From: Mycobacteroides chelonae CCUG 47445
Lineage (GTDB): Bacteria; Actinomycetota; Actinomycetes; Mycobacteriales; Mycobacteriaceae
DNA length: 64,000 bases
NCBI RefSeq assembly: GCF_001632805.1
Contig: NZ_CP007220.1
Location: 186,001-250,000 of the forward strand
Direction: 5' to 3'
Shown: positions 13,740 through 54,800 of the stretch, piece after piece
Layout of the letters: every line of letters starts with the position of its first letter
Numbering within the stretch: position 1 is the first letter of the stretch
Position numbers and translations under genes: made by a program
Notes under the pieces: generated by a model
Databases searched by the model: none
Told to the model about the DNA's origin: nothing
Seen by the model: the letters and a program-made list of their open reading frames with translations, nothing else

Positions 13740-16700
13740 TTACCGACTCTTACGCAACGGCGCGGGTGTCCAGAGTCCGCCGTGCACAGCGGTTCCGACC
13801 TGTAGCTGTGCCACGGTGGCATTCCGGTAATACGGCGTAAACCGTTGCAACGCACCCCAGTCACGGAACCAGTCGTTCTGCAGATAGGTCGGCACCGGAG
13901 TGGCCTTCAACAGCAGCTCGGTGATGCCCAGCGGTCCGCCACCGAGGTAGTCCATCACCGGCGAGTTGGCCTCCGCACCGAAGCGGTCAGGGAGGATGCG
14001 CCACTTCGGGATCTCGATGACCCCGTTCTTGTGGTCGAACGGACGCTGGCAGGGGAAGGCAAGTCCCACAAGCCAATCCAGGAACACTGGATCGGCGCCC
14101 ACAACAGCCTGCAGTGAACGCAATGACGGCACGCGGGGTGGGGTGACCGCGATCCAATGCTGCGGTGCCAAGTCGTCATCGGTGACCAGCAACCGGATTC
14201 GGGTGGCGCTAGTCGGAAGGGCATCGCGGGACATCCGTAGGTTTCGCCAAGCCGGGGAGGGGCCGAGGTCGGCAAACGAGATGGCGCCCATAACCTTTCC
14301 GTCCTCACCGGCGAACTGCGCCTGCAGCTCTACCGGGTCGAACCGGCCCGCGGCCGCCAATACGACCAGCGGCTTGGTGGCGTCCTTCGGGGGCAGTCGG
14401 TACCACGCCGACTGCAACCGGGCGGGACGCTGACTGCCGATCTGATAGCTGCCCATCACGGGTGTGGTCTCGGGCCTGAGATCGAAGGGCAGGCGTGCCC
14501 GCGATCCGTTGACACCGGCGACAACGGTGGTGCCGCCCTCGGTGCCTTCCTGGCTGCCGTTGACGTTGTTGCCGCTCTTGTCGCGTGCGACGAAGCTGTC
14601 CGAGGCCTGGGGGTTGTTCTCCTCGTCGGCCGACACATCCGAGGGAATCCCGTTGGGATCGAACATGATGTTGGTATCGGCGGCCAGTGCCTGTCCGATC
14701 GGGGTGTCGATCGGTTGCAGCATCCCGGCGTTCGGATCCTCTTCGACCAGCACGTCGTTGGCCAGCCCGCAGCCGTTTCCGCGTAGTGCGTCGAGGTTGG
14801 AACGTCCGACCGACCACGCGGGGTACTGGTTGACCATGCCTGCGGTCAGCGAGAAGACCGACCAGATGACGACGATCCAGGTGCCAACGGCCAGAGGAGA
14901 CTCGGCGATGCGTGCCAGCACCGGATGCACGGGTGTGCGGCCGGGGTGGTCGCGGCCGGTGAAATGCATCCATGCCGCTATCAGAAGGGCGAGCACCGAC
15001 AGCCCGAAGAAGACGGTGCTGATGCCGAAGTGCCATTGCGGGAAGGAATTCGACCACGGCACGCCGAAGTTGGAGACGTACCACCACCCGTTCACGCTGG
15101 AGAACGAGAGGGAGAGGACGAACAGCACGATGGCGGCGTACAGCGTGCGGTTGCGCGGTGAGCGCATCGCTGCGGCGGTCACGGCCACGGCGGCCAGCGC
15201 GCCCAGTGATCCCGCCAGGCCCGCGAACACCCCGAAGTGGTGCGTCCACTTGGTGGGAGTGAACATGATCGCGATGAACGAGATCAGCGTGATGCCGATG
15301 ATTCGTCGGCTGGGGCCGCTAGCGGTGCCGGGGATCTTGTTCTTGCGCAATGTCATCGCCACGGCCACGCCGAGCGCGATGAGCAGGGCAAGCACCGGGA
15401 ATCGCCGGGAGATCGCGCCGTCGGTGGTGGGCAGGAATAGCCGTTCGTAGCGGACGTGTTCGTCGAACCAGTTCAACGACGGTCCCACGGCCGATTTGAG
15501 TGCGTTGGCCTGGATCTCACCGACGAGGGTTTGATCCCGGAAGATGACGACCAACGTGACCAGCCCGGCTGCCAGGATCGGTGCCAGCAGTGCGGCATAA
15601 CCGAACCGTTTGGCGCGCTTGCCCACGATGGTTCGTAGTGGTCCGATCGCGACCAGCAGCGCACCGACGGAGGCGATACCCGTCGGTCCGGAGAACAAGG
15701 TGAGCGCACCGATGATGCATGCGACCGCGGCGGGAAGGAGCCGGTTGGTCGCGATCGATCGCTCGACCGAGCACCACGTCAACAGGATGCCGACGGCGAT
15801 GATCGGTTCGGGTCGCAGGCCGTTGTTGAATGGCAGCCAGAACGCCAGGAACATCGCGGCCGCCGTCCATGGCACCACCGGATTCGTGCGCGCGGCGTGG
15901 CCCAGTCGCGGGATCACCTCGCGGCTGATGACGGCCCAGCACAGCACCCCCATGATCAGGGTGGGCAGCCGCATCCAGACGCTGGCAGTGCTGATGTGCG
16001 CCCAGAGGGTCAGTAGGTCGTAGTACCAGCCGAACGGCGACTCGGGAGTGCCGAACCAGCGGTAGTAGTTGGCCATATAGCCCGAGTGCTCCGCGACGCG
16101 GGCCATGGTGAGGATGTAGCCGTCATCAGAGGTGTTGGCGCCCACGAAGTGCCACCACACCAATACCGCGCCGACCAGCGCGTCGAGCGGTCGGGGCTTC
16201 CACCAGCCCTCGGGCATGAAGCGCTTGTGCTTGCGCCCGTCGGCCGTATCGAGAGTGTGTAGCGCGATCAGCGAGATGCCGGTAAGCAGGACGCCCAGGA
16301 TCATCGCGATGAACTTGATGACGGTGGGGGAGCTGCTGTAGCGGGTGTCGACGGTGGCGGAGAGATGCAGGCCGGCGGGAGCGGGTCCGGACAGGTCGGT
16401 GAACACGCCGACGATCTGGGGCCGGAAGTCGTATCCGCCGCGTTCCCCGGCACGGGGCTGTCCGGGTTTGGCGTCTTTGGGGCCCTGCGTCAGGCCGACG
16501 AATTGACCGGTCACCTTGTCTGAATGCGCGGTGACCTCGAGTTGTTGGCAGTTGGGGCCGGTGACCTCGGACAGCGGGGCTGAGACCACCGGCACATTGC
16601 GCACGATCACCACGAGGTCGCCGCCGATCCGCTGGATCAGCATGCCGCGGTCCACCGCGTTGGGCGCCTGCTTGGGGACGGTCGAGAGCAGCACGGTGTT

Positions 16701-35498: not shown

Positions 35499-35585
35499 GG
35501 TGGCGTGGCAGAGCGGCCTAATGCACTCGCCTTGAAAGCGAGAGACGGCTAACACCGTCCGGGGGTTCAAATCCCTCCGCCACCG
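35499..35585 (+). tRNA. tRNA-Ser(UGA)
   Basis: An 87-nt class II tRNA with acceptor arms GGTGGCG and CGCCACC, a D-arm with AGCGGCC, anticodon stem CTCGC/GCGAG around loop CTTGAAA (anticodon TGA, reads UCA), a long variable arm and T-arm GGGGGTTCAAATCCCTC. CCA is not encoded. Confidence 0.96.
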
Positions 35586-35761
35586 CTCTTAACGCCGCAG
35601 CTGGACTGTGCGCAGCTGGGGATGTTTCTGGGTCCCGGCCCGGCTCGAACGGGCTGCCTCCCTCGCCGGCTGCGTATGCAGCGGACCGCGGGTACCGGTT
35701 GACGCGGTCTAGGGCGGGCGCCGCTGATGCTGCCAGGCAGGATTTGCGTCCGGCAACAGAT

Positions 35762-41464: not shown

Positions 41465-42736
41465 ATGACCACTCATTCTTTGCTATCGCTCGTCGATTGG
41501 CCCTCCGCCCGCATCACTGGCAGGCGTCACGGGTACCACGCCGAGGCACTCCCGCAGCGCCTGACGAGGTACCGCGGCGGCACCTATTCATCCACTGTGG
41601 ACAAGGTTGTGTTCACCGACGGAACTTCCGCTCGCACAGATTTAATTCGCCTGAACCCCACTATCGCCGCGTACTCCCTCGATATCGCGGGAATCGCCCC
41701 CAATCTGCCCTCGGGCTACGCGGTGGCCGACTGGCTGTCGGTGGCGAACCTGCGGGCCCGCACCCGTGAATCTCAGGTGGCCTGGATCTTGGCCAACTCC
41801 TTCCCGGCGCTGTCGACGGCACAACTGAGTCGCCGGTTGCGTGCGGTGGGGTATCTGGGCGAGGCGAACATCAAGGACCACGAGGCCATCGCGGGAACCC
41901 AGGCCGCCATCTGGTTCCTCACCAACGGGACAGAGCTGGACACCGCGGCGCGCAATGTGCCAACCGCTACCCGAAAGTCTCCGTCTTTCATCGAGTTCGA
42001 ATTCAAGGAGCGCCCACAGCTGGGCGGTCTGACGGTGCGGACCAGTGCGGGGCAGCAGCCGGCCAGCGTGCGGCTGCACGCATCCGTGAATGGGGCCGTG
42101 TGGCGCGAGGTGTCCTCTTCGGAATTGAATTTCAGCGAGGGTGAGGCGCAGTACGTCAAGACGTTGGGCGTCGGCGCGACGGTTGCCGAAACCCGGCACG
42201 GTGCACCGGATCTCGGGTATCGCTTCTATCGCCTGTACGTGCAGGGCGGTACCGCCGATATCGAGGGTGTCGAATTCTGGTTGCACGATGCCCGTAATCA
42301 CCGCAATGCCGACCGCGTGGTGCAGCTGTACCGGTATCTGTTGGAGCAGTCGTTGATCGCGGCCGGCCAGACTGAGCACGCCCCCGTCATCGATGACTCG
42401 CAGGCTGTGATGGCGGCAGGACTCATGGGGCCCTTCGTCGTGGATTCACAACGCCCGGTTCTGCTCTCGCTGTCCGAGGGTGCCAAGGCCATGGACATCT
42501 CCGGCGCGGAGCTCACCGGGCTGGTGGGCTCGGGCACGCGTTTCTATGTGCGGCCCGCGGAGTGCGTTGCGGCGGTGACGGTCTCGGTGGTTGACCCAGT
42601 GACGACCGCCCGGGTGCTCACCGGTGTGGCAGAGGGGCCGTTGACTCCGTTGGCGCTCGTGCTTCCCGGTGCGCGGGAAGTTGTCGAACTCACCGTCGAG
42701 TGGGCCGAGACCACGCAACTGTCGCGGGTGAGTTAG
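41465..42736 (+). CDS. TQXA thioester-domain protein with the reactive Cys replaced by Ser
   Basis: A 423-residue protein. Residues 60-155 match thioester (TQXA) domains: IAAYSLDI, SQVAWILANSFP and GTQAAIWFLTNG. In active domains the first motif is a-Y-C, and its Cys forms a thioester with the Gln of TQ. Here it is Ser71, so a thioester with Gln146 cannot form. A discoidin-like beta domain follows (about residues 175-280), then a C-terminal beta-rich region. No signal peptide or anchor is seen, unlike surface thioester adhesins. A poly-cysteine attenuator precedes it, and it converges on hisC2 with a 4-base overlap. Role unknown. Confidence 0.75.
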   Translation: MTTHSLLSLVDWPSARITGRRHGYHAEALPQRLTRYRGGTYSSTVDKVVFTDGTSARTDLIRLNPTIAAYSLDIAGIAPNLPSGYAVADWLSVANLRARTRESQVAWILANSFPALSTAQLSRRLRAVGYLGEANIKDHEAIAGTQAAIWFLTNGTELDTAARNVPTATRKSPSFIEFEFKERPQLGGLTVRTSAGQQPASVRLHASVNGAVWREVSSSELNFSEGEAQYVKTLGVGATVAETRHGAPDLGYRFYRLYVQGGTADIEGVEFWLHDARNHRNADRVVQLYRYLLEQSLIAAGQTEHAPVIDDSQAVMAAGLMGPFVVDSQRPVLLSLSEGAKAMDISGAELTGLVGSGTRFYVRPAECVAAVTVSVVDPVTTARVLTGVAEGPLTPLALVLPGAREVVELTVEWAETTQLSRVS

Positions 42737-44045: not shown

Positions 44046-44118
44046 GCGCCCGTAGCTCAACGGATAGAGCATCTGACTACGGATCAGAAGGTTAGGGGTT
44101 CGAATCCCTTCGGGCGCA
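44046..44118 (+). tRNA. tRNA-Arg(ACG), island attachment gene
   Basis: A 73-nt tRNA: acceptor GCGCCCG/CGGGCGC, D-arm AGCTCAACGGATAGAGC, anticodon stem TCTGA/TCAGA around CTACGGA (anticodon ACG), T-arm AGGGGTTCGAATCCCTT. Its last 35 bases recur at 54303-54337, so this gene served as the integration site and stays intact after insertion. Confidence 0.97.
44084..44118 (+). repeat. attL: 3' half of tRNA-Arg, 35-bp direct repeat copy 1
   Basis: Identical over 35 bases to 54303-54337; the bases before (A versus G) and after (C versus T) differ, which sets the limits. The repeat covers the anticodon-stem 3' strand, variable loop, T-arm and acceptor end, the usual crossover region for tyrosine integrases. 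Confidence 0.93.
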
Positions 44119-44278
44119 CTATAGTTCGAGTTCAGGGGCATTTCGCTGGTAGCTGGCTAATTGCACGGCCATCGAATACCCGCAAATTAGATTTTGGTCG
44201 GTGTTGCTGGCTCATCTGCCTACTACCCGACCCGGACTGGCCCACCATGGTTCCTTGAAACACATGGGCACTCTTTGT

Positions 44279-45661
44279 TCAACAGGCTCGCTCAGCAGGA
44301 GAAAAGCCCCAACGGCGACGCGCATGCAGGCCAAGTGTCCATAGGCCGAGGACAAGCGCGGCGGCCAAGCAACTAATTGCGGTGATTTGTAGGGCCGTTT
44401 CAGAAGCGACTTGTGAGCCGATACCGCGGCTGCGATCGGTGACGGCTCCCGCCATCGCCACGCTAAGGCCAGCTGCGACGGTGATCACTGTTTTGGTGAC
44501 TCCGGATGCCTCCCCGGCTCGCTCGGGTGTGATGACTCCTTGAGTGGCGATCAGGGTCAACGCATTAGCGGCCCCGAGGGCGGCGCCAGCTAGCGTGGCC
44601 GCGATCAGATAGACCGTGAGCGATGGCGCCCACACCAGGCATAAAAGGCATGTGGCCGCGCCCGTAAGGAATATAGCCATCGCATATACGGCAACCGAGG
44701 GAACGATGCGGCCGGCCAGTGGGCCGGTGAGTGCCATCGCCAGTGCCGGGATGAGAAAGGCGACGCCTGCCCTAACGACCGACAGACTCCATTGCCCCTG
44801 CAGTGTCAAGGGGACAACGAATAGGAGCATCACCATTGCGGCGTTAGCCACCGCACCGGTGAGCGTCAGCGCCACAAAAGGCCCATTGCGAAAGAGCGCT
44901 AGGTCAACCAGTGGATTAGTCGCTAGTTGTTCGCGATACACAAACAAGATCAGCAGCGCGAACACCAGGATGATCCCGGCGATACTTGCAGATAACGGCC
45001 ATATCCTGACGCGGTCGACGACGATCGCGAGTGCCGCGAGGGCTGCGGTGATCGTCACCAACCCCGGCCAGTCGATCTGTCGATGGTGGTCGTTGTCGAA
45101 GCTCTCGTCGACGCGACGGGCCGCAAGAGCCCCGGCGGCGGCCAAGGGCACATTAAGCCAGAACACCGCCCGCCAAGAGACGGTGTCGGTGAGAAATCCG
45201 CCGACGAATGGCCCGCAGGCGGTGGCTATTCCGCCGATACCTAGCGCCCATCCAATGGCGCGACCACGCATCTTGGTCGGGTACAGGTTGGTGAGCAAAG
45301 ACAGACCTACCGGCATGATCATCGCGGCACCCGCCCCTTGGGCCACACGCGCTCCGACTAAGACGGGCAGCGTCGGAGCGAGCGCGCACACCAGGGACGA
45401 CACCCCGAAAAGGGCCAGTCCTAACACGAGCAGACGCCGTCGCCCGAACAGGTCACCAAGACGTCCGGCACCTAGCATCAGCGTGCCGGTAGACAGCAGG
45501 TAGGCACTGACCACCCACTGCAGACCACCGCTGTCTGCGTGCAGATCACGGCCGATCTGCGGGAGCGCCAGGTTCAACGCGAACGCGTCCAGCTGAATGC
45601 AGAACACTCCAACGGACATGGCCAGCAAGGCCCACTGTCTAGCTACGAATATTGGTGCCAT
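44279..45661 (-). CDS. bcmT: MFS drug exporter of the bicyclomycin-type cluster
   Basis: A 460-residue major-facilitator protein of the DHA2/EmrB-QacA group with about 14 membrane helices. It shows the motif A region GRLGDLFGRRRLLVLG and motif C-like GPFVGGFLTDTVSWRAVFWLNVP. Known bicyclomycin clusters encode an MFS exporter, and this one is divergent from the biosynthetic genes across a 546-base intergenic region. Its likely job is export of the diketopiperazine product and self-protection. The gene name is assigned by context; a general drug pump cannot be excluded. Confidence 0.8.
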   Translation of the reverse strand: MAPIFVARQWALLAMSVGVFCIQLDAFALNLALPQIGRDLHADSGGLQWVVSAYLLSTGTLMLGAGRLGDLFGRRRLLVLGLALFGVSSLVCALAPTLPVLVGARVAQGAGAAMIMPVGLSLLTNLYPTKMRGRAIGWALGIGGIATACGPFVGGFLTDTVSWRAVFWLNVPLAAAGALAARRVDESFDNDHHRQIDWPGLVTITAALAALAIVVDRVRIWPLSASIAGIILVFALLILFVYREQLATNPLVDLALFRNGPFVALTLTGAVANAAMVMLLFVVPLTLQGQWSLSVVRAGVAFLIPALAMALTGPLAGRIVPSVAVYAMAIFLTGAATCLLCLVWAPSLTVYLIAATLAGAALGAANALTLIATQGVITPERAGEASGVTKTVITVAAGLSVAMAGAVTDRSRGIGSQVASETALQITAISCLAAALVLGLWTLGLHARRRWGFSPAERAC

Positions 45662-46207
45662 GACGATCTGGCGTCCTTCCTTGCCGCGGCGGCGGCATTA
45701 CCGAGAACTTGGCGCCCGTCTCGGCTCGGACTAGGCGCGTAAAGAGCAATAGAGCGGAACAAGGAAAACCCACGGTGGGTTGGCGATTTCACGGAAATCG
45801 TGATCAGACGACAGGCACGTAAATTCACTCTGGGCGCCGCAGGAAGACACCTGCAGCAGGAAACCGCGAGGGCGTGCATCAATACCCTACCGGATATCAA
45901 ACTAGCGTGCCAGAACCAGAACAGATCGTGCCAACATGACAGATTGCCATCAATATGACAGATGCAGCAACGCCTTCGTTCAACTTGACTAATTCATGGC
46001 CAATTGACTGACTATGCCGGATCTGTTGGCTGAACTATTTCGCCTTGCTACGGTTTTTGTGTACGACCTCTAGCGTGTAATCCGCAGGGGTTCGAATTGA
46101 CTCTTCCGGGGGCTGGGAGTTGGCGGGTAATTAGCCCTCATTTTCGAGAATATGGTAGTTCGCTACCTGTCCTAGACCTCGACAATGAGAATAGTTAGGC
46201 AGATGCA
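45662..46207. promoter_or_regulatory. 546-bp divergent intergenic region, probable cluster promoters
   Basis: No convincing gene here. Between exporter and synthase genes it is relatively AT-rich. Visible elements are an inverted repeat CGATTTC-ACG-GAAATCG (45784-45800), two direct ATGACAGAT copies (45936-45944 and 45955-45963), and TTGACT boxes around 45984 and 46004 that could be -35 elements. No regulator gene is in the island, so control would come from a host factor. Confidence 0.4.
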
Positions 46208-46951
46208 GTGACATTAGATGCACAGACGACTTTTACTGAATCGAATTCAACTCGACGAGGACGCTACAAAGCAGAAATAGCGTCGGTCTCCCCCATGTCC
46301 AGCAGAAATACCTTCGAACAGCATGACACGTGCTTTCTCGGGGTGAGCCTTGAGAATGCGAACTTCACTCCAGCCAAGCTCAGGAGCATGGTGAAGTGGA
46401 TCTCACGTAGATTTTCACACTGCACGGTTCTCGTAGGTGACAGCATTCATCGCATCACGCTTGAGTCGGCTGGTTCGACCACTCCCGATGATGCTCAGTT
46501 GCGCGCGCTGGAGCTCGGATGTGAGTTTATCGAGGATATGAGTGAGATATTTGATGAGTACTGCGATTCCACTGACTTCACATACTTGAAATGCAGCGAG
46601 GTAGCCGATAGCCAGGAGTTCTCCAAGTTTCACACCGAGCTACGTGCCTTCTTCTCAGAGAACGACGCATTTAAGTCATCAGTGGAGTCGTTCGGTCGCG
46701 CATACCACGGCAAACACTCGCATGAAGTAGGTGCAGCTGAATGGGAAAAGCGAATCAACATGTCCAGCGACTACTTCTTAGAAGAGTTCGCGATTTTCGC
46801 CTGCCTGCAGCAGCAAGGAATTCCGGTGATGATATATCCCGGCTCCTTTAGCACACTCTCCGAAATCGCAGGCGGAGAACATCCGATGGCGCCACAAGAG
46901 TTGCGTGATCTGATTGTCGTGTCACTTCACCTGAAAGGCCGCGGATCGTGA
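46208..46951 (+). CDS. bcmA: tRNA-dependent cyclodipeptide synthase (BcmA-like)
   Basis: A 247-residue cyclodipeptide synthase, which joins two aminoacyl-tRNAs into a diketopiperazine. The nucleophile motif CFLGVSLENANF gives Ser47, matching Ser37 of AlbC, with Asn50 at the AlbC Asn40 position. The second site SSDYFLEEFAIF gives Tyr189 and Glu193 (AlbC Tyr178 and Glu182). Then MIYPGS gives Tyr210-Pro211 where AlbC has Tyr-His. HCTVLVGDS matches the Rossmann strand. In known clusters BcmA makes cyclo(L-Ile-L-Leu); this product is inferred. The GTG start is uncertain; ATG 46294 would remove 29 residues. First gene of a coupled operon. Confidence 0.88.
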   Translation: MTLDAQTTFTESNSTRRGRYKAEIASVSPMSSRNTFEQHDTCFLGVSLENANFTPAKLRSMVKWISRRFSHCTVLVGDSIHRITLESAGSTTPDDAQLRALELGCEFIEDMSEIFDEYCDSTDFTYLKCSEVADSQEFSKFHTELRAFFSENDAFKSSVESFGRAYHGKHSHEVGAAEWEKRINMSSDYFLEEFAIFACLQQQGIPVMIYPGSFSTLSEIAGGEHPMAPQELRDLIVVSLHLKGRGS

Positions 46952-47937
46952 CAGATTCAATTCGTACAACCATCCCGGAAATACGGCGGGGAAAGATCTA
47001 TCAGGATGTCTACGCAAAACGCTCCTCGGATCAGGTTGCCCTGGACGAAGCACAGCTAGAACGAGCCAAAATCTCGGCTGGAGAACTACTTTTCGAAAAT
47101 TCTCACGCGCGGAATCAGGCATTTGGCGACGGAGTGTTCTTCCTGGAGATACCTGCCGATCTTGACGTGGTGGCCGGGGATGCATTCGCTCAGCAGTTCT
47201 ATCGCGGCCTTTCTTTCGCTCCGTACGGCAAGTTCCGCACCATCGATAGCGACAGTTTTGGCGACCCTCTGCTGGGATTCCACCAACGCTCCAACCAGAT
47301 CGAACAATTCCTCCTGGAACGACGCTTTTGGGCCAATCATTATCCGGCCGAGATCGCCAGTCTTGGCGAGGCGCTCACACAGCTCTCCGAACAGGTACTG
47401 CGATCGGTGTTATCGCTGGTGGGCATACCCGAGACGGAATGGTCGCTGGCCACCGGCGGCTGCTCAAGGTCGGCGGGCTCATATCATTTAACATTCAACC
47501 ACTATCGGCCTGCCCACGAAGACATCGGTCTGAGCTCCCATAAAGACGACGGGTTTCTCACGATCCTGCGGACCACCAGGCCGGGCCTGGAAGTTGCCCG
47601 CGGCGACCGGTGGGAGATCGTGCCGGTAGACCCCTCCTGCTTCATCATCAACTTTGGGCTGTCGATGGAAATCCTTACCGCGCACAGCGAAACACCTGTT
47701 GCGGCAATCATGCATAGGGTCGCACGCCAACAAGAAGATCGGTCCAGCTTCGGACACTTCAGCTCCAGCGGATGCCTGCCGGGCCAGGACCAAGGCATCT
47801 ACCGCTACGCCCAAGAAGCCGGACTTGAGCGCATCTGCGATTCGCGTGAGTTGATCGATGAGAACGACTACGAGATCTATGCCGGGACCGAGGCCCCTGA
47901 ACCCGCCTCCCTGCAGGCCGAAAGCAGCCCCCAATGA
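46948..47937 (+). CDS. bcmB: Fe(II)/2-oxoglutarate dioxygenase (BcmB position)
   Basis: A 329-residue oxygenase of the isopenicillin-N-synthase-like group. The iron triad is His198-x-Asp200 (SSHKDDGF) and His256 (MHRVAR), and Arg265-Ser (DRSSF) should bind 2-oxoglutarate. GTG 46948 overlaps the synthase stop by 4 bases. Five such enzymes plus one P450 oxidise cyclo(Ile-Leu) in bicyclomycin synthesis; the reaction of this one is assigned only by gene order. It has a longer N-terminus (about 40 residues before the core) than its four paralogues. Confidence 0.85.
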   Translation: MTDSIRTTIPEIRRGKIYQDVYAKRSSDQVALDEAQLERAKISAGELLFENSHARNQAFGDGVFFLEIPADLDVVAGDAFAQQFYRGLSFAPYGKFRTIDSDSFGDPLLGFHQRSNQIEQFLLERRFWANHYPAEIASLGEALTQLSEQVLRSVLSLVGIPETEWSLATGGCSRSAGSYHLTFNHYRPAHEDIGLSSHKDDGFLTILRTTRPGLEVARGDRWEIVPVDPSCFIINFGLSMEILTAHSETPVAAIMHRVARQQEDRSSFGHFSSSGCLPGQDQGIYRYAQEAGLERICDSRELIDENDYEIYAGTEAPEPASLQAESSPQ

Positions 47938-48839
47938 CCGCGGCAATGACACTGCAACGCGCGCTCGTTGATAATGAGGCTGCTCTGGCATTCACCACCG
48001 AAGGTGGCATGTCTCAAGCACTGCGGGACGGTTGTTTCCTCCTCGCTATACCAAACGGATTCGACGCCGAGCCCGGTATCACATTGTGCCGTCAGTTCTA
48101 TCGGAGTCCCGAAGACGGCCCCGAAGAGACCCATGCGTATCGCGGATTCCGAGCGCTAGAGGGCATCTACTTTGATCGGGAACATTTCCAGACCGAGCAT
48201 GTCCTAATAGACGGGCCCGGACGCCGTCTGCATTTCCCCGACGAACTTATCGACATGACCGAGCAGATGAGCGATCTGACCCGCTTGGTGTTGCGCCACG
48301 CGATGAACGAATTGGATATCCCTGAGGCCCTGTGGAGCAAGGTCACCGGGGGCGCAGTAGATGGACGAGGCACACACTGGTTCGCGGCAAACCACTACCG
48401 CTCCGAACAGCCCAAACTCGGCTGCGCCCCGCACAAGGACACTGGATTTGTGACCGTCCTGTACAACGAAGAGCCAGGACTGGAAGCCTCTGTCGAAGGC
48501 ACCTGGGTTCCGATCGACCCAGCACCCGGCTATTTCATCGTGAACTTCGGGGGGACGTTCGAGCTGCTCACCGCCGAGTTAAGCCAACCTGTGCGAGCCA
48601 TCTTGCATCAAGTCCGCCAGTGCAATCCGACACCCAGTTCGCAGGACCGCTTCTCATTCGCGGCCTTCGCCAATCCACCAGCGACCGGCGACCTCTACCA
48701 GGTGTATCGCGATGGGTCCGCCGCGGCGGTGCGCAGCTCCGCAGAATTTCTGCGCGAGTTCAACGAACAAACCTGGTCCGACCGCCACGCAGAGTTCGGA
48801 ATTAGCCAGTCTGTGGGTGCAGGAACAGGAACACCATAG
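47934..48839 (+). CDS. bcmC: Fe(II)/2-oxoglutarate dioxygenase (BcmC position)
   Basis: A 301-residue paralogue of the previous enzyme. Iron ligands are His167-x-Asp169 (APHKDTGFVTV) and His225 (ILHQVRQ); Arg239 in DRFSF should hold the 2-oxoglutarate carboxylate. The N-terminal signature RDGCFLLAIP...CRQFYRSP is shared by the set. ATG 47934 overlaps the preceding stop by 4 bases. Expected to hydroxylate an unactivated carbon of the diketopiperazine side chain; the exact site is not readable from sequence. Confidence 0.85.
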   Translation: MTAAMTLQRALVDNEAALAFTTEGGMSQALRDGCFLLAIPNGFDAEPGITLCRQFYRSPEDGPEETHAYRGFRALEGIYFDREHFQTEHVLIDGPGRRLHFPDELIDMTEQMSDLTRLVLRHAMNELDIPEALWSKVTGGAVDGRGTHWFAANHYRSEQPKLGCAPHKDTGFVTVLYNEEPGLEASVEGTWVPIDPAPGYFIVNFGGTFELLTAELSQPVRAILHQVRQCNPTPSSQDRFSFAAFANPPATGDLYQVYRDGSAAAVRSSAEFLREFNEQTWSDRHAEFGISQSVGAGTGTP

Positions 48840-50353
48840 TGGCTACTTCCGCAAGCACCCACAAGACTACCCAGTCGACCAGCATCGTCGCTGCACCGGA
48901 ATATCCAAAAAATGAGCCTTTTCCCGGTGTGCTCGCCCATCATCCCGGACCCACTCGTGGACATAGCCATGCCGCTGCCTTTCATGAAGCAACAGTTAAT
49001 CGAGGCTTGCCGGCATCGGATTACTTCCGCAGCGCTGGGATCAGCAGACTCGCTGAGGAAAACGGCGGCCTGTGCACTTTCTGGATGGGACACCAACTCG
49101 CGGTCTACCAGATCACAAACACTCCCTTAGTCGGCGACAACTCCTTGGCACCCTCCACGGACGCAAACAGGGACCTGTTCGGCGATTTCATGGGATCGCT
49201 GCCACATGACCACCAGGACCGCCCGACGAAACGCGCAGTCATCGAGCGGTCCCTGGGTAACGCGAAATTTATTGAGCGCCTTGAGCCCGCTATACGGCGA
49301 TACACCGCAGATTATCTACGCCGCTCAGCCGGGCAACCGATTGCGCTAGATGACTTCACGCTGACCCTGACTGCCTACGTGGACAGCATGATCCCCGGCG
49401 TTCTGGATCTCACTGACAAACCACTGCCGGAGTACCTTCACTCAGCAGAATACGGTCCGGTAGTCCGCGGCTTCTTCGACTTGGCCTCCGATGTCATCAG
49501 CAACAACAACCCCCAAGCTATGCGGGATTTCGACATCATCGTCCCGTTCGTTCGCGACCTACTGACCGACAACCTCGGCTCTCTAGAAAACGCCCCGTCC
49601 TCCAACATGATTCGGCGCTACTTCGCGTTGTGGGACCACCCTTTGACTCGTGACGGTCTAGATCTCCTCGACACCGCACGGATCAAAGAACTCGGCACAA
49701 TCATCGTCGCAACGTACGACACCACCGCTCTGAGTCTGATGTGGGCACTTAGCTACATCGAGAGCGAACCCGAAGTCAAGAAAACTGTCATTGCAGAAGC
49801 CCAGAGTCGTGGCGTCGGATCGTGCCCCGCACACGAAGCGCCTTCGGTGACGGACCTTGCAGTTCTCGAAGCCGTACGGCTCGGCGGGAGCAACCCCTGC
49901 GCGCTGTGGCGTCGTACGACCGCGCCCTTCACCCTGCATCATCGAGGAACAACGGTGACGATCCCGCCGGACACCATGCTGTGGTTGGACCGCCGCCAGG
50001 CCAACCGCGACCCAGCTGTCTTCCCAGAGCCAGACCGTTTCGCACCCGCGAACATTCAGGCGATTTTCCGGACTGAGCGTGAGACGGTCGCATCCCTGAT
50101 TTCCCGGGGACGTTACGAGATCAATTCATTCAGCATGGTCAACGCCGATCGAAACCCGCGCAAGTGTCCTGGCCGCCTTTTTTCAGTACAGATGCAGTCC
50201 GTCGTCCTGTCGGAACTGTATGGCGCGTACACAGTAAGCGCCAATGGCGTAGACCTTCAGCTCAAGCGGCACGCGTCCATGCCCCGCCCCGCCGCACCCG
50301 GCACGATCACGATCTATCCACGCACCGAGACAGTCAAGGAGCCGACCTCATGA
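48839..50353 (+). CDS. bcmD: Cytochrome P450 (BcmD position)
   Basis: A 504-residue P450. The heme cysteine is Cys443 in NADRNPRKCPGRLFS; the K-helix ExxR is in VLEAVRLGG; the I-helix segment reads GTIIVATYDTTALSLMW, with Thr at the oxygen-activation site. It is longer than typical soluble bacterial P450s (about 400) because of an extended N-terminus. GTG 48839 shares one base with the preceding stop. As the fourth gene and only P450 it matches the bicyclomycin cluster order. Ferredoxin and reductase partners are not in the island and must come from the host. Confidence 0.87.
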   Translation: MATSASTHKTTQSTSIVAAPEYPKNEPFPGVLAHHPGPTRGHSHAAAFHEATVNRGLPASDYFRSAGISRLAEENGGLCTFWMGHQLAVYQITNTPLVGDNSLAPSTDANRDLFGDFMGSLPHDHQDRPTKRAVIERSLGNAKFIERLEPAIRRYTADYLRRSAGQPIALDDFTLTLTAYVDSMIPGVLDLTDKPLPEYLHSAEYGPVVRGFFDLASDVISNNNPQAMRDFDIIVPFVRDLLTDNLGSLENAPSSNMIRRYFALWDHPLTRDGLDLLDTARIKELGTIIVATYDTTALSLMWALSYIESEPEVKKTVIAEAQSRGVGSCPAHEAPSVTDLAVLEAVRLGGSNPCALWRRTTAPFTLHHRGTTVTIPPDTMLWLDRRQANRDPAVFPEPDRFAPANIQAIFRTERETVASLISRGRYEINSFSMVNADRNPRKCPGRLFSVQMQSVVLSELYGAYTVSANGVDLQLKRHASMPRPAAPGTITIYPRTETVKEPTS

Positions 50354-51294
50354 CGACCTCCAATTCAGTCACGGCGCGGGCGCCCGTTAGCTTGCCGCCG
50401 ATGCCACGGGAACACGAAGCTCTTGCTGCCTACCCTCGAATCCAGCTAGAACACGCCCACCTCGACGAGGAACAACTCCTGTTCGAATCCGCTGAGGGGT
50501 TCGACCGCGCCTTAGCTCAAGGTTTCTTTCTGCTGCGCATCCCTGAAGCTCTCGAGACCGAGCCCGGCGATCGGTTCGCTGCACACTTCTACCAAGACCA
50601 AGCAGGCGACGAACTAGACCGTTATCGCGGGTTCCGGGAGATCGACGTGCCTGGCACCTACCAAGGCTACTTCGACCGCGAACATGACCAATGGGAGAAC
50701 TTCTACATCGAACAAGCCAATTGGGCGCTGCTGCCTGCCGACGTTGCCGAACTAGGGCGTGGCATGACCGAACTTGGGATCTCCGTCCTGCGAGCAGTAT
50801 TCCGCCGCCTGCGAATCCCTGCGGAGCTATGGAGTCAAGTCTCTAGCGGCCTGTCCGAGCACCACGGCCATCAAATGCTCGCGTTCAACCATTTCCGCTC
50901 ACAGAAAACCACCCGGGGCTGCAAGTTCCACCGTGACTCTGGATGGGTGACCGTACTGCGGTCTGTAGACCCCGGTCTCCTTGCCCTCATCGAAGGCAGA
51001 CTCGGTTCCATAAACCCAGAGCCGGGATATTTCATTGTCAACTTTGGAAGCTCTTTGGAAGTACTCACCGCGGATCTGCCCACCCCGGTCCGGGCGAACA
51101 TTCACGGAGTAGTCGGCACGGAAAGAGCCGCAGGCCAGCCCGATCGCATCTCGTACGTAACGTTCCTGGACTCCAACCTCGACGGAACCATCTACCGCAT
51201 CACCAACGACGGAACAGCGCAGCCCGTGCAGTCGGTCGCCGACTTCGCTGTGCAAGAAGTGAATCGTACTTACAACGACGACATCACGCTGTGA
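50350..51294 (+). CDS. bcmE: Fe(II)/2-oxoglutarate dioxygenase (BcmE position)
   Basis: A 314-residue dioxygenase. Iron ligands are His194-x-Asp196 (KFHRDSGWVTVL) and His252 (NIHGVVG); Arg266 (PDRISYVTF) should bind 2-oxoglutarate. ATG 50350 overlaps the P450 stop by 4 bases, which decides the start over upstream in-frame codons. It is closest in motifs to the last dioxygenase of the cluster (both have DSGWVTVLRS). Role in oxidising the diketopiperazine is inferred from cluster match. Confidence 0.85.
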   Translation: MTTSNSVTARAPVSLPPMPREHEALAAYPRIQLEHAHLDEEQLLFESAEGFDRALAQGFFLLRIPEALETEPGDRFAAHFYQDQAGDELDRYRGFREIDVPGTYQGYFDREHDQWENFYIEQANWALLPADVAELGRGMTELGISVLRAVFRRLRIPAELWSQVSSGLSEHHGHQMLAFNHFRSQKTTRGCKFHRDSGWVTVLRSVDPGLLALIEGRLGSINPEPGYFIVNFGSSLEVLTADLPTPVRANIHGVVGTERAAGQPDRISYVTFLDSNLDGTIYRITNDGTAQPVQSVADFAVQEVNRTYNDDITL

Positions 51295-51349
51295 ACACTC
51301 ACTCCGATCCCAACAACGAAGACACCAACCACGATGGGAAGCAACCAGC

Positions 51350-52240
51350 ATGACCACGCACGCTGTTGACGAAACTCGCCTAATCCTCCCCGCAGCTGCG
51401 CTAGATGCAGGGAAATTGCGGTTTGCCTCCGAGACTGACGAAACCCAGGCGCTCCAGATCGGCGCGTTCCACCTAGCCGTACCCGATGATATCGACGTAA
51501 GTGCTGGGCTCATCTTCTGCCGAAGCTTCTACAAACCCCACACCGACAACCCTGACGATCGCTATCGCGGCCATCGCGACCACGGTCACCCCGAATCCAA
51601 GCTCGGCTACGAAGACCGCCCCGACCAAGTCGAACAGCTACAACTGGAAAGCTTCCTCTGGCACCGATACCTCCCAGACGACGTGACGGCGCTACTTCAG
51701 CAGATGAAAAAGCTGACCTTAGATACCCTTTTCGGTATTTTCGACGCTGCAGACATACCGAAAGATGATTGGGAACCCATCACTGGCGGGGCCCAAGAAG
51801 ACACAGGGCTCTGCTACACCACCGTGAATCATTACCGCTCAGGCCTCAACGATCGAGCGGGGATCGTTGAACACACGGACAGCGGATTTATTACCACTAT
51901 CTGCACCGATCAGCCCGGCTACGAGATCCTGCATGACGGTCGTTGGCTGCCCGTACAAGAACGCACAGGGCATTTCATCGTTAACCTCGGCGACGCCTTT
52001 CAAGTCCTGACCGAGAAGCTTCCACGCCCAGTGAATGCTGTATACCACCGCGTTCCGGAGCGTCAGGCCGACATCACTTCCTCGGATCGCTCTTCATTCA
52101 CCATTTACATGGGGCCGCGATACGACATGTCTTTGTACCAATACGACTCAGAGCACAAGCTGTCTGAGTTTCAGGGCTTCCGCGAGTTCTCGGTGGAGAA
52201 AGCCGGCAAGCTGGGCTACGAATTCCACTCGCGCATATGA
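51350..52240 (+). CDS. bcmF: Fe(II)/2-oxoglutarate dioxygenase (BcmF position)
   Basis: A 296-residue dioxygenase and the most divergent of the five. Iron ligands are His175-x-Asp177 (VEHTDSGFITTI, with Thr between instead of Lys or Arg) and His233 (VYHRVPE); Arg247 is in DRSSFTIY. It is the only one not overlapping its predecessor: 55 bases separate it from bcmE, with GGGAAG before the ATG as its own ribosome site. In published bicyclomycin pathways one dioxygenase desaturates rather than hydroxylates, and this position is a candidate by order. Confidence 0.83.
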   Translation: MTTHAVDETRLILPAAALDAGKLRFASETDETQALQIGAFHLAVPDDIDVSAGLIFCRSFYKPHTDNPDDRYRGHRDHGHPESKLGYEDRPDQVEQLQLESFLWHRYLPDDVTALLQQMKKLTLDTLFGIFDAADIPKDDWEPITGGAQEDTGLCYTTVNHYRSGLNDRAGIVEHTDSGFITTICTDQPGYEILHDGRWLPVQERTGHFIVNLGDAFQVLTEKLPRPVNAVYHRVPERQADITSSDRSSFTIYMGPRYDMSLYQYDSEHKLSEFQGFREFSVEKAGKLGYEFHSRI

Positions 52241-53163
52241 ACACCGCACCGGAGCACACACAAAGCAGCGCCCGCCACGACTGGCAGCTAGCGGAGCTGC
52301 AAAACGAAACCCTTGTCTTCTCGACCCAAGACGGGCTGCAACGCGCACTGCAGGACGGCTTCTTCTACGTCAAGCAGCCCAGCGACCTGGATCTGTCCGC
52401 CGGGGACCGCTTCGCCCGCAGCTTCTATCTCCCAGCTGCACCGGGCGAACAGCCGGACCCATACCGCGGCTACCAGAAGTGGACTTCAGACGAACTAGGC
52501 CCGCATCAAGGCTACTTCCGCCGAGAAGCCGACCAAACCGAACAATTCTTCCTCGAAAGTGCCTGGTGGAAGAAGATCTACCCGAACCCGCTTGTGCAAC
52601 AGGCCGAAGCCATGCGCGACTTTGCACTAAACATCCAGCAGGCAGTGTTAAGTCAACTCGACCTACCGCGTGAGCTTTGGCACCAGGGCACTGGACACAG
52701 TCTCACCCCGCAAGGTACACACACCCTGACGTTCAATCACTTCCGTCCCGAAGTCGCCGCCCGCGGCCTCAACATCCACAAAGACTCAGGATGGGTGACC
52801 GTCCTGCGCTCCACTGAACCCGGGCTAGAAGTGGCTCGCGACGGCGACTGGCACCCTATCGACCCCATCCCCGGCACGTTCATCGTCAACTTCGGCTGTG
52901 CCATCGAGATTTTGATGCGATCGACCACTACCCCGGTCGCCGCCGTCGCTCACCGCGTAATACAGCAAGAGCGTGACGACGACGGGAAATCGGACCGATT
53001 CTCCTATGCACTGTTCGTTGACAGCGCCCTCGATAGCGACGTATGCCCCGGCCTTTTCACCTATCACCCGGAAACAGGCCTCCACCTGCAGACCAGTTTT
53101 GACGCCTTCCTCAACGAGATCCTCGACAACACCTATCAGAAAGACACGACCGGACTGTACTGA
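52237..53163 (+). CDS. bcmG: Fe(II)/2-oxoglutarate dioxygenase (BcmG position)
   Basis: A 308-residue dioxygenase. Iron ligands are His181-x-Asp183 (NIHKDSGWVTVL) and His239 (VAHRVIQ); Arg254 is in SDRFSYALF. ATG 52237 overlaps the previous stop by 4 bases. It completes the seven-gene run. Like its paralogues it begins with a segment of the form QDGLQRALQDGFFYVKQP followed by DRFARSFYLP. Expected to hydroxylate an intermediate of the pathway. Confidence 0.85.
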   Translation: MNTAPEHTQSSARHDWQLAELQNETLVFSTQDGLQRALQDGFFYVKQPSDLDLSAGDRFARSFYLPAAPGEQPDPYRGYQKWTSDELGPHQGYFRREADQTEQFFLESAWWKKIYPNPLVQQAEAMRDFALNIQQAVLSQLDLPRELWHQGTGHSLTPQGTHTLTFNHFRPEVAARGLNIHKDSGWVTVLRSTEPGLEVARDGDWHPIDPIPGTFIVNFGCAIEILMRSTTTPVAAVAHRVIQQERDDDGKSDRFSYALFVDSALDSDVCPGLFTYHPETGLHLQTSFDAFLNEILDNTYQKDTTGLY

Positions 53164-53251: not shown

Positions 53252-53440
53252 ATGTCCGACAGAACCGATCGCACCTCTGTCGACGTCGCCGTTCCTGAGA
53301 TAACCGATCGATCAAAGAGGTTCCCAACCGAGACGTTCCGGTATCTCATCGCGCAGCCGTGGCGGTTCCCCGAATACAACGGAATGCCCAGCGGGGGAGT
53401 CGTTGAACTGGCAAACGGAGCCGTAAAGAAGGTCTATTAG
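53252..53440 (+). CDS. Small protein of unknown function in the island
   Basis: A 62-residue hydrophilic protein with a mixed charged N-terminus (MSDRTDRTSVDVAVPEITD), an aromatic middle (FRYLIAQPWRFPEYNG) and no membrane segment. Its stop shares one base with the next gene start, so the two are probably co-translated. It begins 88 bases after bcmG. No family recognised, and a pathway role is doubtful. Confidence 0.5.
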   Translation: MSDRTDRTSVDVAVPEITDRSKRFPTETFRYLIAQPWRFPEYNGMPSGGVVELANGAVKKVY

Positions 53441-53940
53441 TGTCACGCAAGAATGTTCTGATAACTGTCTCAGCTGTCATCGTCGCGGCAGCTTTGGTGC
53501 TGGGCGGGGTGTACTTGCTTCGATCGGCGCCGTCCGCTCCAGACGTGAGCTGTCAAACCGTTGGGGAACTGCTCAGGTATTCCGACGATGAGATGGCGCG
53601 CATCAAAAAGCACAACGAAGAGGTGGCCGAGACACGAGACGCTGACCGACAAGACGAAGCGATCCCGATGTATCAGAAATGGGCTGCCACCCTTAGGGAT
53701 TACGCCGAGAAGATCTCTGGCCCGGAGTTCAAAGGTACTGCGGTGCAAATGGCCGACGCTGCAGACGAGGTTGTCGAGCGGGAGATTCAATTCCTGGGGA
53801 AACCGGCGGCAGGGCAGACCCGAGAGCAGCATCTGAAAGAGTCGACGGACAACATTGTGGCTGCCGTCCGCAAGGTCAAAGATGCCGAGGCCAAGCTGCG
53901 AATCAGGTGCCCGGTCGGATCCTCTGACACCAAACTCTAG
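53440..53940 (+). CDS. Membrane-anchored helical protein, unknown
   Basis: A 166-residue protein. An N-terminal hydrophobic segment (VLITVSAVIVAAALVLGGVYLL, here described by its residues 6-27) should anchor it in the membrane with the rest outside. The outer part is charged and helical, with two cysteines (VSCQTVG and RIRCPVG) near its two ends that could form a disulfide. GTG 53440 overlaps the upstream stop by one base. Family not recognised. Confidence 0.55.
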   Translation: MSRKNVLITVSAVIVAAALVLGGVYLLRSAPSAPDVSCQTVGELLRYSDDEMARIKKHNEEVAETRDADRQDEAIPMYQKWAATLRDYAEKISGPEFKGTAVQMADAADEVVEREIQFLGKPAAGQTREQHLKESTDNIVAAVRKVKDAEAKLRIRCPVGSSDTKL

Positions 53941-54263
53941 CGTCGTTCCTCGATGGGGTTACCGTCCTCATCGACCGGCCACGGTGGACGCGGGGTGGCA
54001 GGCATTTCTGGTGCGCCACCGTACAAGTACGGATGCGGCATGTCGGGGTTTTTCCACGCGGGACGGACGTTGCGAGTCTTGTACATCACGAACATCCCCA
54101 CGCCGAAGATGAGCAATCCGACCAGCGTTAGCAGGGGGCCATGGATCCAGGGTATATGACCCCAGGTCGCTACATTCCTGATATACACGCACGCGAACCC
54201 AGGTGAAAGGTTACGAACAACGGCGGTGGCAAATTGATGGAAAGTCATGTGCCACAACGTCAC
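53937..54263 (-). CDS. Small membrane protein with Pro-rich tail, unknown
   Basis: A 108-residue protein. One clear membrane helix (about residues 42-62, HGPLLTLVGLLIFGVGMFVMY), preceded by a weaker hydrophobic stretch, and a proline-rich polar tail (PDMPHPYLYGGAPEMPATPRPPW). It converges on the previous gene with a 4-base overlap and is the last gene before attR, 40 bases away. The true start may be one of the internal Met codons. Family not recognised. Confidence 0.45.
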   Translation of the reverse strand: MTLWHMTFHQFATAVVRNLSPGFACVYIRNVATWGHIPWIHGPLLTLVGLLIFGVGMFVMYKTRNVRPAWKNPDMPHPYLYGGAPEMPATPRPPWPVDEDGNPIEERR

Positions 54264-54302
54264 TAGCGTACTCTGGAGAACACAGGCAAACGCACGAATA
54301 TG

Positions 54303-54337
54303 TCAGAAGGTTAGGGGTTCGAATCCCTTCGGGCGCA
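54303..54337 (+). repeat. attR: 35-bp direct repeat of tRNA-Arg 3' end, copy 2
   Basis: Perfect copy of 44084-44118. It lacks the 5' half of a tRNA, so it is not a gene. It marks the right end of the island; the ordinary chromosome resumes after it. Confidence 0.93.
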
Positions 54338-54368: not shown

Positions 54369-54800
54369 ATGACACAGGTTCAACGATATTTCCCGCACCC
54401 TCCCCACGAGGTGTGGTCGGCTCTCGTCGATCCGGCATCGTGGTGGGGCAAGCCTGATACCCCGCCGGCTGATGTCACCGTGGGGAGCGCTTTCACGATG
54501 ACCACCGTTCCCGTGGTGGGCACGCGGTTCAATGGCGTATTCGAGGTCGAGTTTCTCGACGCCGCCCCCTACGAGCATTTGACCTTGGGCCTGCTGGCCC
54601 ACGCGTCAACCGGTCAGTCGGCGCGGTGGACGCGCCATGTGGCCTTTCGTGAGCACGAGGGCGGCACGCTGTTGACGGTGACGAATAGGGGCGTCAATCT
54701 CGACGACGTCGATGAACGGATTCTGCTCCGGGTGGTCAAAGAGATTCAGGCGACCGAGTTGCACGGCATCGCCCGGCTCCTGGATCAGCCTCGCCCGTGA
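54369..54800 (+). CDS. SRPBCC/AHSA1-type START-like domain protein
   Basis: A 143-residue single-domain protein of the helix-grip fold: YFPHPPHEVWSALVDPASWWGKPD at the start, FEVEFLDAAPYEHLTLG in the middle and a long C-terminal helix. Members bind hydrophobic ligands or act as cyclases or chaperone partners; no specific role can be given. First chromosomal gene after the island, 31 bases from attR, so before insertion it lay directly behind the tRNA-Arg gene. Confidence 0.75.
   Translation: MTQVQRYFPHPPHEVWSALVDPASWWGKPDTPPADVTVGSAFTMTTVPVVGTRFNGVFEVEFLDAAPYEHLTLGLLAHASTGQSARWTRHVAFREHEGGTLLTVTNRGVNLDDVDERILLRVVKEIQATELHGIARLLDQPRP

What the first reader, a model, noticed from the sequence alone, without database searches (positions are those of the whole stretch)
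44279..53163. Complete bicyclomycin-type biosynthetic cluster in a mycobacterial genome
Seen: a cyclodipeptide synthase, two Fe/2OG dioxygenases, a P450 and three more Fe/2OG dioxygenases in one coupled run, with a divergent MFS exporter. All catalytic residues are intact (CDPS Ser47, Tyr189, Glu193; five H-x-D...H triads with R; P450 Cys443). Known: the Streptomyces and Pseudomonas bicyclomycin clusters consist of one CDPS, five such dioxygenases, one P450 and an MFS exporter, with the P450 fourth in order. Inferred: the host makes bicyclomycin or a close relative that inhibits Rho. I recall similar clusters being noted in other actinobacteria, including mycobacteria, so the type may not be new, but the host and island context deserve study.
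Basis: partly seen in the sequence, partly recalled or inferred. Interest (0 to 1): 0.95.

Follow-up and report, generated by a model that had tools for sequence, protein, structure and literature searches.

The report
Bicyclomycin gene island in Mycobacterium chelonae
The Mycobacterium chelonae genome carries a complete, intact gene set that likely makes the Rho-blocking antibiotic bicyclomycin, a cluster type already reported for this species in 2018, and it sits in a 10-kb DNA island bounded by a repeat of a tRNA gene end, at a site that prophages of related bacteria also use.

Summary
In detail: eight intact genes at 44279-53163 are bcmT and bcmA-G. C, E and G match solved BcmC, BcmE and BcmG, D a solved BcmD, and all five dioxygenases fall into position-specific clades at 100% support. 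The host is M. chelonae CCUG 47445. Bicyclomycin-like clusters in 20 M. chelonae strains were published by Vior et al. 2018. Saridakis et al. 2022 proposed that the Leu-to-Met change in Rho makes M. chelonae immune; this genome has that Met. So the finding itself is already known.

New detail here is the island. An exact 35-bp repeat of the 3' end of tRNA-Arg(ACG) lies at 44084-44118 and 54303-54337; prophages of related bacteria use the same core. Relative G319 has the empty site. Relative G088 has a 2.5-kb element there with a WXG100 gene and a toxin-like gene. In M. chelonae the bcm segment replaces all but the last 47 codons of that toxin-like gene. No integrase was found in the island.

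The likely route, inferred, is arrival at a prophage site followed by loss of the integrase. Production of bicyclomycin was not testable here.

The parts
44046..44119 (+). tRNA-Arg (ACG); its 3' half is the left attachment-like repeat
   Evidence: ARAGORN
44084..44118 (+). left 35-bp direct repeat (attL-like)
   Evidence: exact repeat
44279..45661 (-). bcmT, MFS exporter
   Evidence: Pfam MFS_1 2.9e-55; best NCBIfam model is the DHA2 type EmrB, below its cut-off; 65-71% identical to the divergent MFS of six Gram-positive clusters (L002-L006, L019), 56% and 53% to the downstream MFS of Actinokineospora and P. fragi
45662..46207 (.). 546-bp divergent intergenic region, presumed promoters
   Evidence: promoter role inferred
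46208..46951 (+). bcmA, cyclodipeptide synthase
   Evidence: Pfam CDPS; NCBIfam tRNA_cyclodipep; PDB 9j61 2.1e-93
46948..47937 (+). bcmB, Fe/2OG dioxygenase
   Evidence: PDB 7v2t 5.4e-136, labelled only as a dioxygenase; clade B 100/100
47934..48839 (+). bcmC, Fe/2OG dioxygenase
   Evidence: PDB 8xhp (SsBcmC) 2.8e-134; clade C; 7 of 7 reported pocket residues, counted by hand
48839..50353 (+). bcmD, cytochrome P450
   Evidence: PDB 9xho 'BcmD' 6.1e-220; 68% to S. cinnamoneus BcmD P0161
50350..51294 (+). bcmE, Fe/2OG dioxygenase
   Evidence: PDB 8xhy (SsBcmE) 3.9e-140; clade E; 11 of 11 pocket residues
51350..52240 (+). bcmF, Fe/2OG dioxygenase
   Evidence: clade F 100/100; no close solved structure (best 2.4e-43)
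52237..53163 (+). bcmG, Fe/2OG dioxygenase
   Evidence: PDB 8xht (PaBcmG) 1.5e-116; clade G
53297..53440 (+). remnant: last 47 codons of a 364-aa toxin-like gene that is open in relative G088
   Evidence: junction and translation compared with L138
53440..53940 (+). 166-aa protein of the resident cassette; possibly an immunity or membrane-anchored partner
   Evidence: 20 homologues, 74-93% identical, the named ones all Mycobacteroides; 95 of 396 genus genomes match, but only 3 (host, G088, G319) at over 80% identity, the rest weakly; no Pfam family; role inferred
53937..54263 (-). 108-aa ORF of the resident cassette, membrane-protein-like by eye
   Evidence: no Pfam family
54303..54337 (+). 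right 35-bp direct repeat (attR-like)
   Evidence: exact repeat; empty site in G319 has one copy

Best explanation
This is a complete bicyclomycin (bcm) gene cluster, predicted to make bicyclomycin and likely to export it, carried on a 10.2-kb island at the 3' end of tRNA-Arg in Mycobacterium chelonae CCUG 47445. Predicted steps, by orthology with the pathway worked out in Streptomyces: BcmA joins Ile-tRNA and Leu-tRNA into cyclo(Ile-Leu); BcmE, BcmC and BcmG hydroxylate it in turn; BcmB closes the ether bridge; the P450 BcmD hydroxylates; BcmF makes the exocyclic alkene; BcmT exports the product. The host Rho has Met at the position of E. coli Leu320, which in M. tuberculosis Rho confers bicyclomycin resistance, so the producer is likely immune at the target. 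The Met is also present in two relatives in which no bcm cluster was seen, so it likely preceded the cluster. History of the island (inferred): a prophage-type site was first filled by a WXG100/toxin-like cassette. A bcm-bearing element then entered at the same tRNA end, and a deletion removed any integrase together with most of the toxin-like gene.
For: Sequence and families. Matches to solved enzymes for A, B, C, D, E and G; the entries for C, E and G are named as bicyclomycin enzymes in PMC12089406 and that for D is labelled BcmD. Five dioxygenase clades, each by position, in a 57-row tree. Gene order A-G identical in ten other clusters, of which S. somaliensis has bcmD and bcmE in two frames and Williamsia a stop inside bcmB. 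Pocket residues: BcmE 11 of 11 and BcmC 7 of 7 as reported for the crystal structures; BcmG 8 of 10 against PaBcmG, the two differences shared with 7 of 10 other BcmG rows. Host identity: the attachment pair of prophage McProf, printed in PMC9434293 for M. chelonae CCUG 47445 at 1,521,426-1,589,648, lies at exactly those coordinates. Rho Met. Island: repeat, one-copy empty site in G319, 2,537-bp element at the same site in G088, toxin-like-gene remnant.
Against: No metabolite or expression data. The CDPS tree is weakly resolved inside the bcm-like set. BcmF has no close solved relative. The cluster holds no regulator of its own, so it could be silent in culture. No integrase was found in the island, and its ends share only the core with the prophages, so the route of entry is inferred. 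G319 was checked for bcm only at this site and in the stretches held, not genome-wide.
Confidence: 0.85

Rival explanations
1. The cluster makes a bicyclomycin analogue rather than bicyclomycin itself, because one tailoring enzyme or the CDPS has drifted.
For: The CDPS is 65-69% identical to the BcmAs of five Gram-positive clusters (L002-L006) and 51-59% to those of five others. BcmG differs from PaBcmG at two substrate-contact positions.
Against: All reported pocket residues of BcmE and BcmC are kept. The BcmG differences are shared with 7 of 10 other rows. P. aeruginosa and S. cinnamoneus, whose clusters Vior et al. place in distant clades, make the same product (PMC5930311, abstract and passages).
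Confidence: 0.1
2. The genes are intact but silent: a recently arrived cluster that is not expressed under ordinary conditions in M. chelonae.
For: No regulator in the island. GC 58% against 65% suggests foreign, incompletely adapted DNA. In the listings I saw no paper that reports bicyclomycin from a mycobacterium; most of those papers were not opened.
Against: All eight frames are open, and the database clusters P0001 (16 member sequences, 96% identical BcmA) and P0141 (19 members, 92% identical BcmD) suggest a lasting, conserved cluster.
Confidence: 0.2
3. The two 35-bp repeats are an old relic unrelated to bcm arrival: bcm entered the resident cassette by homologous or illegitimate recombination, not by integration at the tRNA.
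For: G088 has the same repeat pair without bcm, and the right bcm junction lies inside the toxin-like gene, not at a repeat.
Against: The left bcm junction is at the end of the tRNA repeat, with no resident sequence left between, as integration at the tRNA followed by one deletion predicts.
Confidence: 0.35

Closest known systems
bcm clusters of Mycobacterium chelonae (20 strains), Vior et al. 2018, PMC5930311
   Same: Same species and cluster type, near tRNA genes; flanks syntenic in M. abscessus; most Gram-positive clusters there have the divergent bcmT seen here.
   Different: No difference in the cluster is known to me; their sequences were not compared. In the main text 'direct repeat', 'attB', 'attL' and 'toxin' do not occur; its figures and supplements were not seen.
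bcm clusters of Streptomyces cinnamoneus (PMC6934819) and Pseudomonas aeruginosa SCV20265 (PMC5930311)
   Same: One CDPS, five dioxygenases, one P450, one MFS.
   Different: P450 68% to S. cinnamoneus and 52% to a P. aeruginosa P450. P. aeruginosa has bcmT downstream and, by Vior et al., exchanged E/F.
Rho Leu-to-Met bicyclomycin resistance of M. tuberculosis, Saridakis et al. 2022, PMC8828861
   Same: Same residue in this host; the paper names M. chelonae and proposes self-immunity.
   Different: Shown here in addition: two near relatives in which no bcm was seen also carry Met.
Prophage integration at tRNA genes and phage-encoded ESX-secreted toxin cassettes of the M. abscessus-chelonae group, PMC8092301 and PMC10654092
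   Same: A tRNA-Arg core used as attachment site; WXG100 plus toxin-like gene beside an attachment junction (in G088).
   Different: No phage genes and no integrase found in this island; an antibiotic cluster takes their place. The G088 genes have no sequence match in the prophage stretches tested.

Membership tests
bicyclomycin biosynthetic cluster | CDPS of the BcmA type with catalytic Ser, Tyr, Glu | tested here: met
   Ser47, Tyr189, Glu193; families and relatives
bicyclomycin biosynthetic cluster | five Fe/2OG dioxygenases orthologous to B, C, E, F, G | tested here: met
   each in its own group, support 100, in 100% of 200 bootstrap trees
bicyclomycin biosynthetic cluster | P450 orthologous to BcmD | tested here: met
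   9xho 'BcmD' 6.1e-220; 68% to S. cinnamoneus BcmD
bicyclomycin biosynthetic cluster | order A-B-C-D-E-F-G with MFS exporter | tested here: met
bicyclomycin biosynthetic cluster | product is bicyclomycin | not testable with these tools
   needs LC-MS or NMR
tRNA-integrated mobile island | direct repeat of the tRNA 3' end at both edges | tested here: met
   35 of 35 bp
tRNA-integrated mobile island | empty site with one repeat copy in a relative | tested here: met
   G319: one copy, then after 24 bp a gene whose protein is 60% identical to that of the gene right of the island
tRNA-integrated mobile island | own integrase | tested here: not met
   none of the 8 PF00589 matches in the genome lies in the island; no unassigned ORF of integrase size; serine integrases were not searched for as a family
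phage-encoded ESX toxin cassette | intact WXG100, toxin and immunity genes | tested here: not met
   only the last 47 codons of the toxin-like gene plus the 166-aa gene remain in the window

The most novel reading that the evidence does not exclude
The bicyclomycin cluster is cargo of a prophage attachment-site hot spot: an integrase-less, satellite-like cassette that changes places with WXG100/toxin cassettes at tRNA-Arg and can be cut out and moved by the integrases of prophages that use the same core, so phages carry an anti-Rho antibiotic pathway among mycobacteria whose Rho is already immune.
Probability: 0.15. Interest if true: 0.65.

Novelty: already known. Interest (0 to 1): 0.3.

Why it matters
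[quoted passage not shown] The cluster in M. chelonae is published. What is added is how it sits there: three states of one tRNA site (empty, toxin-like cassette, bcm) in three genomes of the group, and a Rho that carries the resistance residue in all three. That makes two questions directly testable: whether immunity came before the antibiotic genes, and whether phage attachment sites move antibiotic pathways among mycobacteria.

Tried and rejected
bcm genes on phages or plasmids: none found. The IMG/VR scan gave 21 pattern matches and no relative; the phage collection gave no match; the plasmid collection gave one partial match, 28% of the query, in Cupriavidus.

Phage origin of the cassette genes: tblastn of the 166-aa and 108-aa proteins against the phage collection gave no match. 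The G088 WXG100, the first 300 residues of the 364-aa protein and the 166-aa protein had no match at E 1e-4 in prophiGD43A-5's end or the 49 IMG/VR stretches. So the link to prophages rests on the shared core and the cassette type, not on sequence similarity of the genes.

Shared integrase arm sites: blastn found no similarity beyond the core and tRNA flank between the island and the prophage stretches. This is against easy mobilisation in trans.

CDPS tree as proof of substrate: rejected, too weakly resolved.

Rho regular expression missed Williamsia and Actinokineospora. Both were then read from a tblastn alignment: Leu.

Papers: PMC5930311 (outline with abstract, and passages), PMC8828861, PMC6934819, PMC8092301, PMC10654092, PMC9434293, PMC10796651 and PMC10499228 (passages found by term); PMC12089406 (passages and its section 7 in full). 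Figures and supplements were not seen; all other papers only as search listings. The passages of PMC10796651 and PMC10499228 mention only bcr-type resistance genes, not the cluster.
Full report
Observation. The eight ORFs are where the finding puts them, all open, and Pfam assigns MFS, CDPS, five 2OG-Fe(II) oxygenases and a P450. Neighbouring genes from A to G overlap by 4 or 1 nt, except a 55-nt gap between bcmE and bcmF.

Identity of each enzyme. Against solved structures the window proteins match, in order: A to CDPS 9j61 (2.1e-93); B to 7v2t (5.4e-136); C to 8xhp, SsBcmC (2.8e-134); D to 9xho, named BcmD (6.1e-220); E to 8xhy, SsBcmE (3.9e-140); G to 8xht, PaBcmG (1.5e-116). The names SsBcmE, SsBcmC and PaBcmG come from PMC12089406. 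7v2t is called only 'dioxygenase' or 'Fe/2OG dependent dioxygenase' in the PDB table; that it is BcmB is recalled. What 9j61 makes was not looked up. BcmF has no close solved relative (best 2.4e-43). The BcmD search gives 68% identity to the protein named BcmD of S. cinnamoneus and 52% to a P. aeruginosa P450.

Orthology. A scan of species genomes with a 20-row CDPS alignment gave 33 loci. Ten of them have CDPS, five dioxygenases and P450 in the order A-G (L002-L006, L008, L009, L011, L019, L034); L019 (S. somaliensis) has bcmD and bcmE in two frames each, and L005 (Williamsia) has an in-frame stop in bcmB. L021 (Photorhabdus) holds only A, B and E-like pieces in the DNA held. The other 22 loci show no bcm dioxygenase (ORFs of 80 aa or more, E 1e-10), but several of them are short contigs. 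In a tree of 57 dioxygenase sequences (window, the ten loci and Photorhabdus), the five positions form five groups, each one side of a branch with support 100 and in 100% of 200 bootstrap trees; window B, E and G pair with Williamsia. The bootstrap had not fully settled (0.987). The CDPS tree (33 rows) places the window nearest, by path, to the BcmAs of Streptomyces clusters, but the branches around it are not well supported.

Active sites. Eleven residues that PMC12089406 section 7 reports around the substrate of SsBcmE are all kept in the window's BcmE, and in 9 of 11 other BcmE rows (one row is truncated there, Photorhabdus differs). I derived the numbering correspondence from motif offsets, not from a printed alignment. 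Seven of seven reported SoBcmC residues are kept (counted by hand in the alignment, chain numbering one higher than the paper's). For PaBcmG, 8 of 10 are kept (by hand); R81 and H154 read H and T here, as they do in 7 of 10 other BcmG rows, among them Streptomyces and P. fragi. The predicted reaction order E, C, G, B, D, F is that of PMC6934819 (passages).

Host. The genome is one contig of 5,029,817 bases. PMC9434293 prints the attachment repeat of prophage McProf in M. chelonae CCUG 47445 with coordinates 1,521,426-1,589,648; the repeat is found twice in this genome, starting at 1,521,426 and ending at 1,589,648. The host is therefore M. chelonae CCUG 47445.

Prior art. Vior et al. 2018 (PMC5930311; abstract and passages) report bcm-like clusters in 20 M. 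chelonae strains and Williamsia; the mycobacterial ones lie near tRNA genes, with flanks syntenic in M. abscessus, where some strains have phage genes between the flanks. Saridakis et al. 2022 (PMC8828861; passages) show that Met495 of M. tuberculosis Rho (E. coli Leu320) causes resistance, and name M. chelonae as having both the Met and the cluster. The finding is thus already known in its main points. In the listings of the other searches I saw no paper on bicyclomycin detected from a mycobacterium and none on the repeat described below; most listed papers were not opened, and the library holds only part of the literature.

Rho. This genome has one Rho over the family cut-off. It reads IIATAMVETG where E. 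coli reads IIATALIDTG. Met is also present in G088 and G319, two near relatives. G088, by its handle number, was among the 198 genomes, in which only the host had BcmA. G319 was not in that sample; its bcm absence rests on the empty site and the stretches held. Leu is present in 8 of 8 other bcm hosts examined, out of the ten clusters: Williamsia, Actinokineospora, four Streptomyces, Kitasatospora, P. fragi. So the Met likely preceded the cluster in this lineage; the Williamsia host, whose B, E and G enzymes pair with those of M. chelonae, lacks it.

Island. An exact 35-bp repeat of the 3' half of tRNA-Arg(ACG) lies at 44084-44118 and 54303-54337, 10,219 bp apart. In G319 one copy of the core (one mismatch in 31 nt) ends the tRNA, and 24 bp further begins a gene whose protein is 60% identical to that of the gene at 54369 in the window (AHSA1 family): the empty site. 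In G088, 97% identical over the 1.4-kb left flank and 94% over 8.6 kb, two copies lie 2,537 bp apart and enclose a WXG100 protein (Pfam 9.2e-11), a 364-aa protein, a 166-aa protein and a small ORF. The right kilobase of that element is 94.0% identical to window 53297-54302. In the window the 364-aa gene is reduced to its last 47 codons, and everything from the tRNA to that point is the bcm segment. A relative of the 166-aa gene also lies elsewhere in G319, 82% identical in DNA. WXG100 plus polymorphic toxin plus immunity genes next to attachment junctions are a common feature of M. abscessus prophages (PMC8092301, PMC10654092; passages), and the latter paper describes an attachment site overlapping a tRNA-arg gene; whether it is this one was not checked. 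That the 364-aa protein is such a toxin is inferred from its position and its WXG100 neighbour; no toxin family was matched.

Phages at the same core. Seven phage records share part of the tRNA region, among them prophiGD43A-5 of M. abscessus, Bipper and Gordonia phage UmaThurman (95-97% over 39-44 nt); in prophiGD43A-5 a tyrosine integrase lies beside it. Of 49 IMG/VR stretches with the exact 31-nt core, 13 carry the left flank of this very tRNA (75-97% identical) and 20 encode a relative of that integrase; four contigs show the flank at one end and the integrase at the other. No integrase was found in the island. No similarity beyond the core was found between the island and those phages, which speaks against ready mobilisation.

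Spread. BcmA was found in 1 of 198 genus genomes, the host itself. In 397 genomes of the order, 8 had a match, but only 2 are close: the host, and one at 55% identity.

Verdict. Shown: complete orthologous cluster, host, Rho residue, three states of the site. Inferred: the product, its export, immunity, the order of events at the site. The cluster is known; the site history is a modest addition. Interest 0.3.

Noticed in passing
L012, L013, L014, L016 (Okeania, Symploca): Cyanobacterial loci pair a BcmA-like CDPS (51-52%) with a BcmD-like P450 (57-58% in Okeania, a partial 47% match in Symploca at a contig end) and no bcm dioxygenase in the DNA held (only L012 has long flanks): possibly a two-gene relative of the bicyclomycin pathway. 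No listed paper in one literature search names Okeania with it.
   Followed up: partly
L034 (Pseudomonas fragi), 13945-15796: This Gram-negative cluster has bcmE and bcmF in the Gram-positive order by tree, although Vior et al. describe E/F as exchanged in Gram-negative bacteria.
   Followed up: partly
L005 3382-3384; L019 12562-15142; L021 9929-10690: Broken bcm genes in relatives: in-frame stop in Williamsia bcmB, bcmD and bcmE in two frames each in S. somaliensis, bcmA in two pieces in Photorhabdus.
   Followed up: no
P0089, P0215, P0233: Proteins that by Pfam listing join a 2OG dioxygenase domain to a CDPS (P0089, 320 aa) or to a BcmD-like P450 (P0215, P0233).
   Followed up: no
window 35499-35591; L138 5214-7027: At tRNA-Ser(TGA), relative G088 holds about 1.7 kb that the window lacks, edged by a near-identical 54-bp copy of the tRNA end: probably another variable tRNA site.
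   Followed up: partly
L143 and L150 (Streptomyces sp. DH24 genome): A second Rho-like protein below the family cut-off in a bcm host, with Leu at the resistance position.
   Followed up: no
window 41465-42736: Protein with a thioester (TED) domain, Pfam 7.8e-10, upstream of the island.
   Followed up: no
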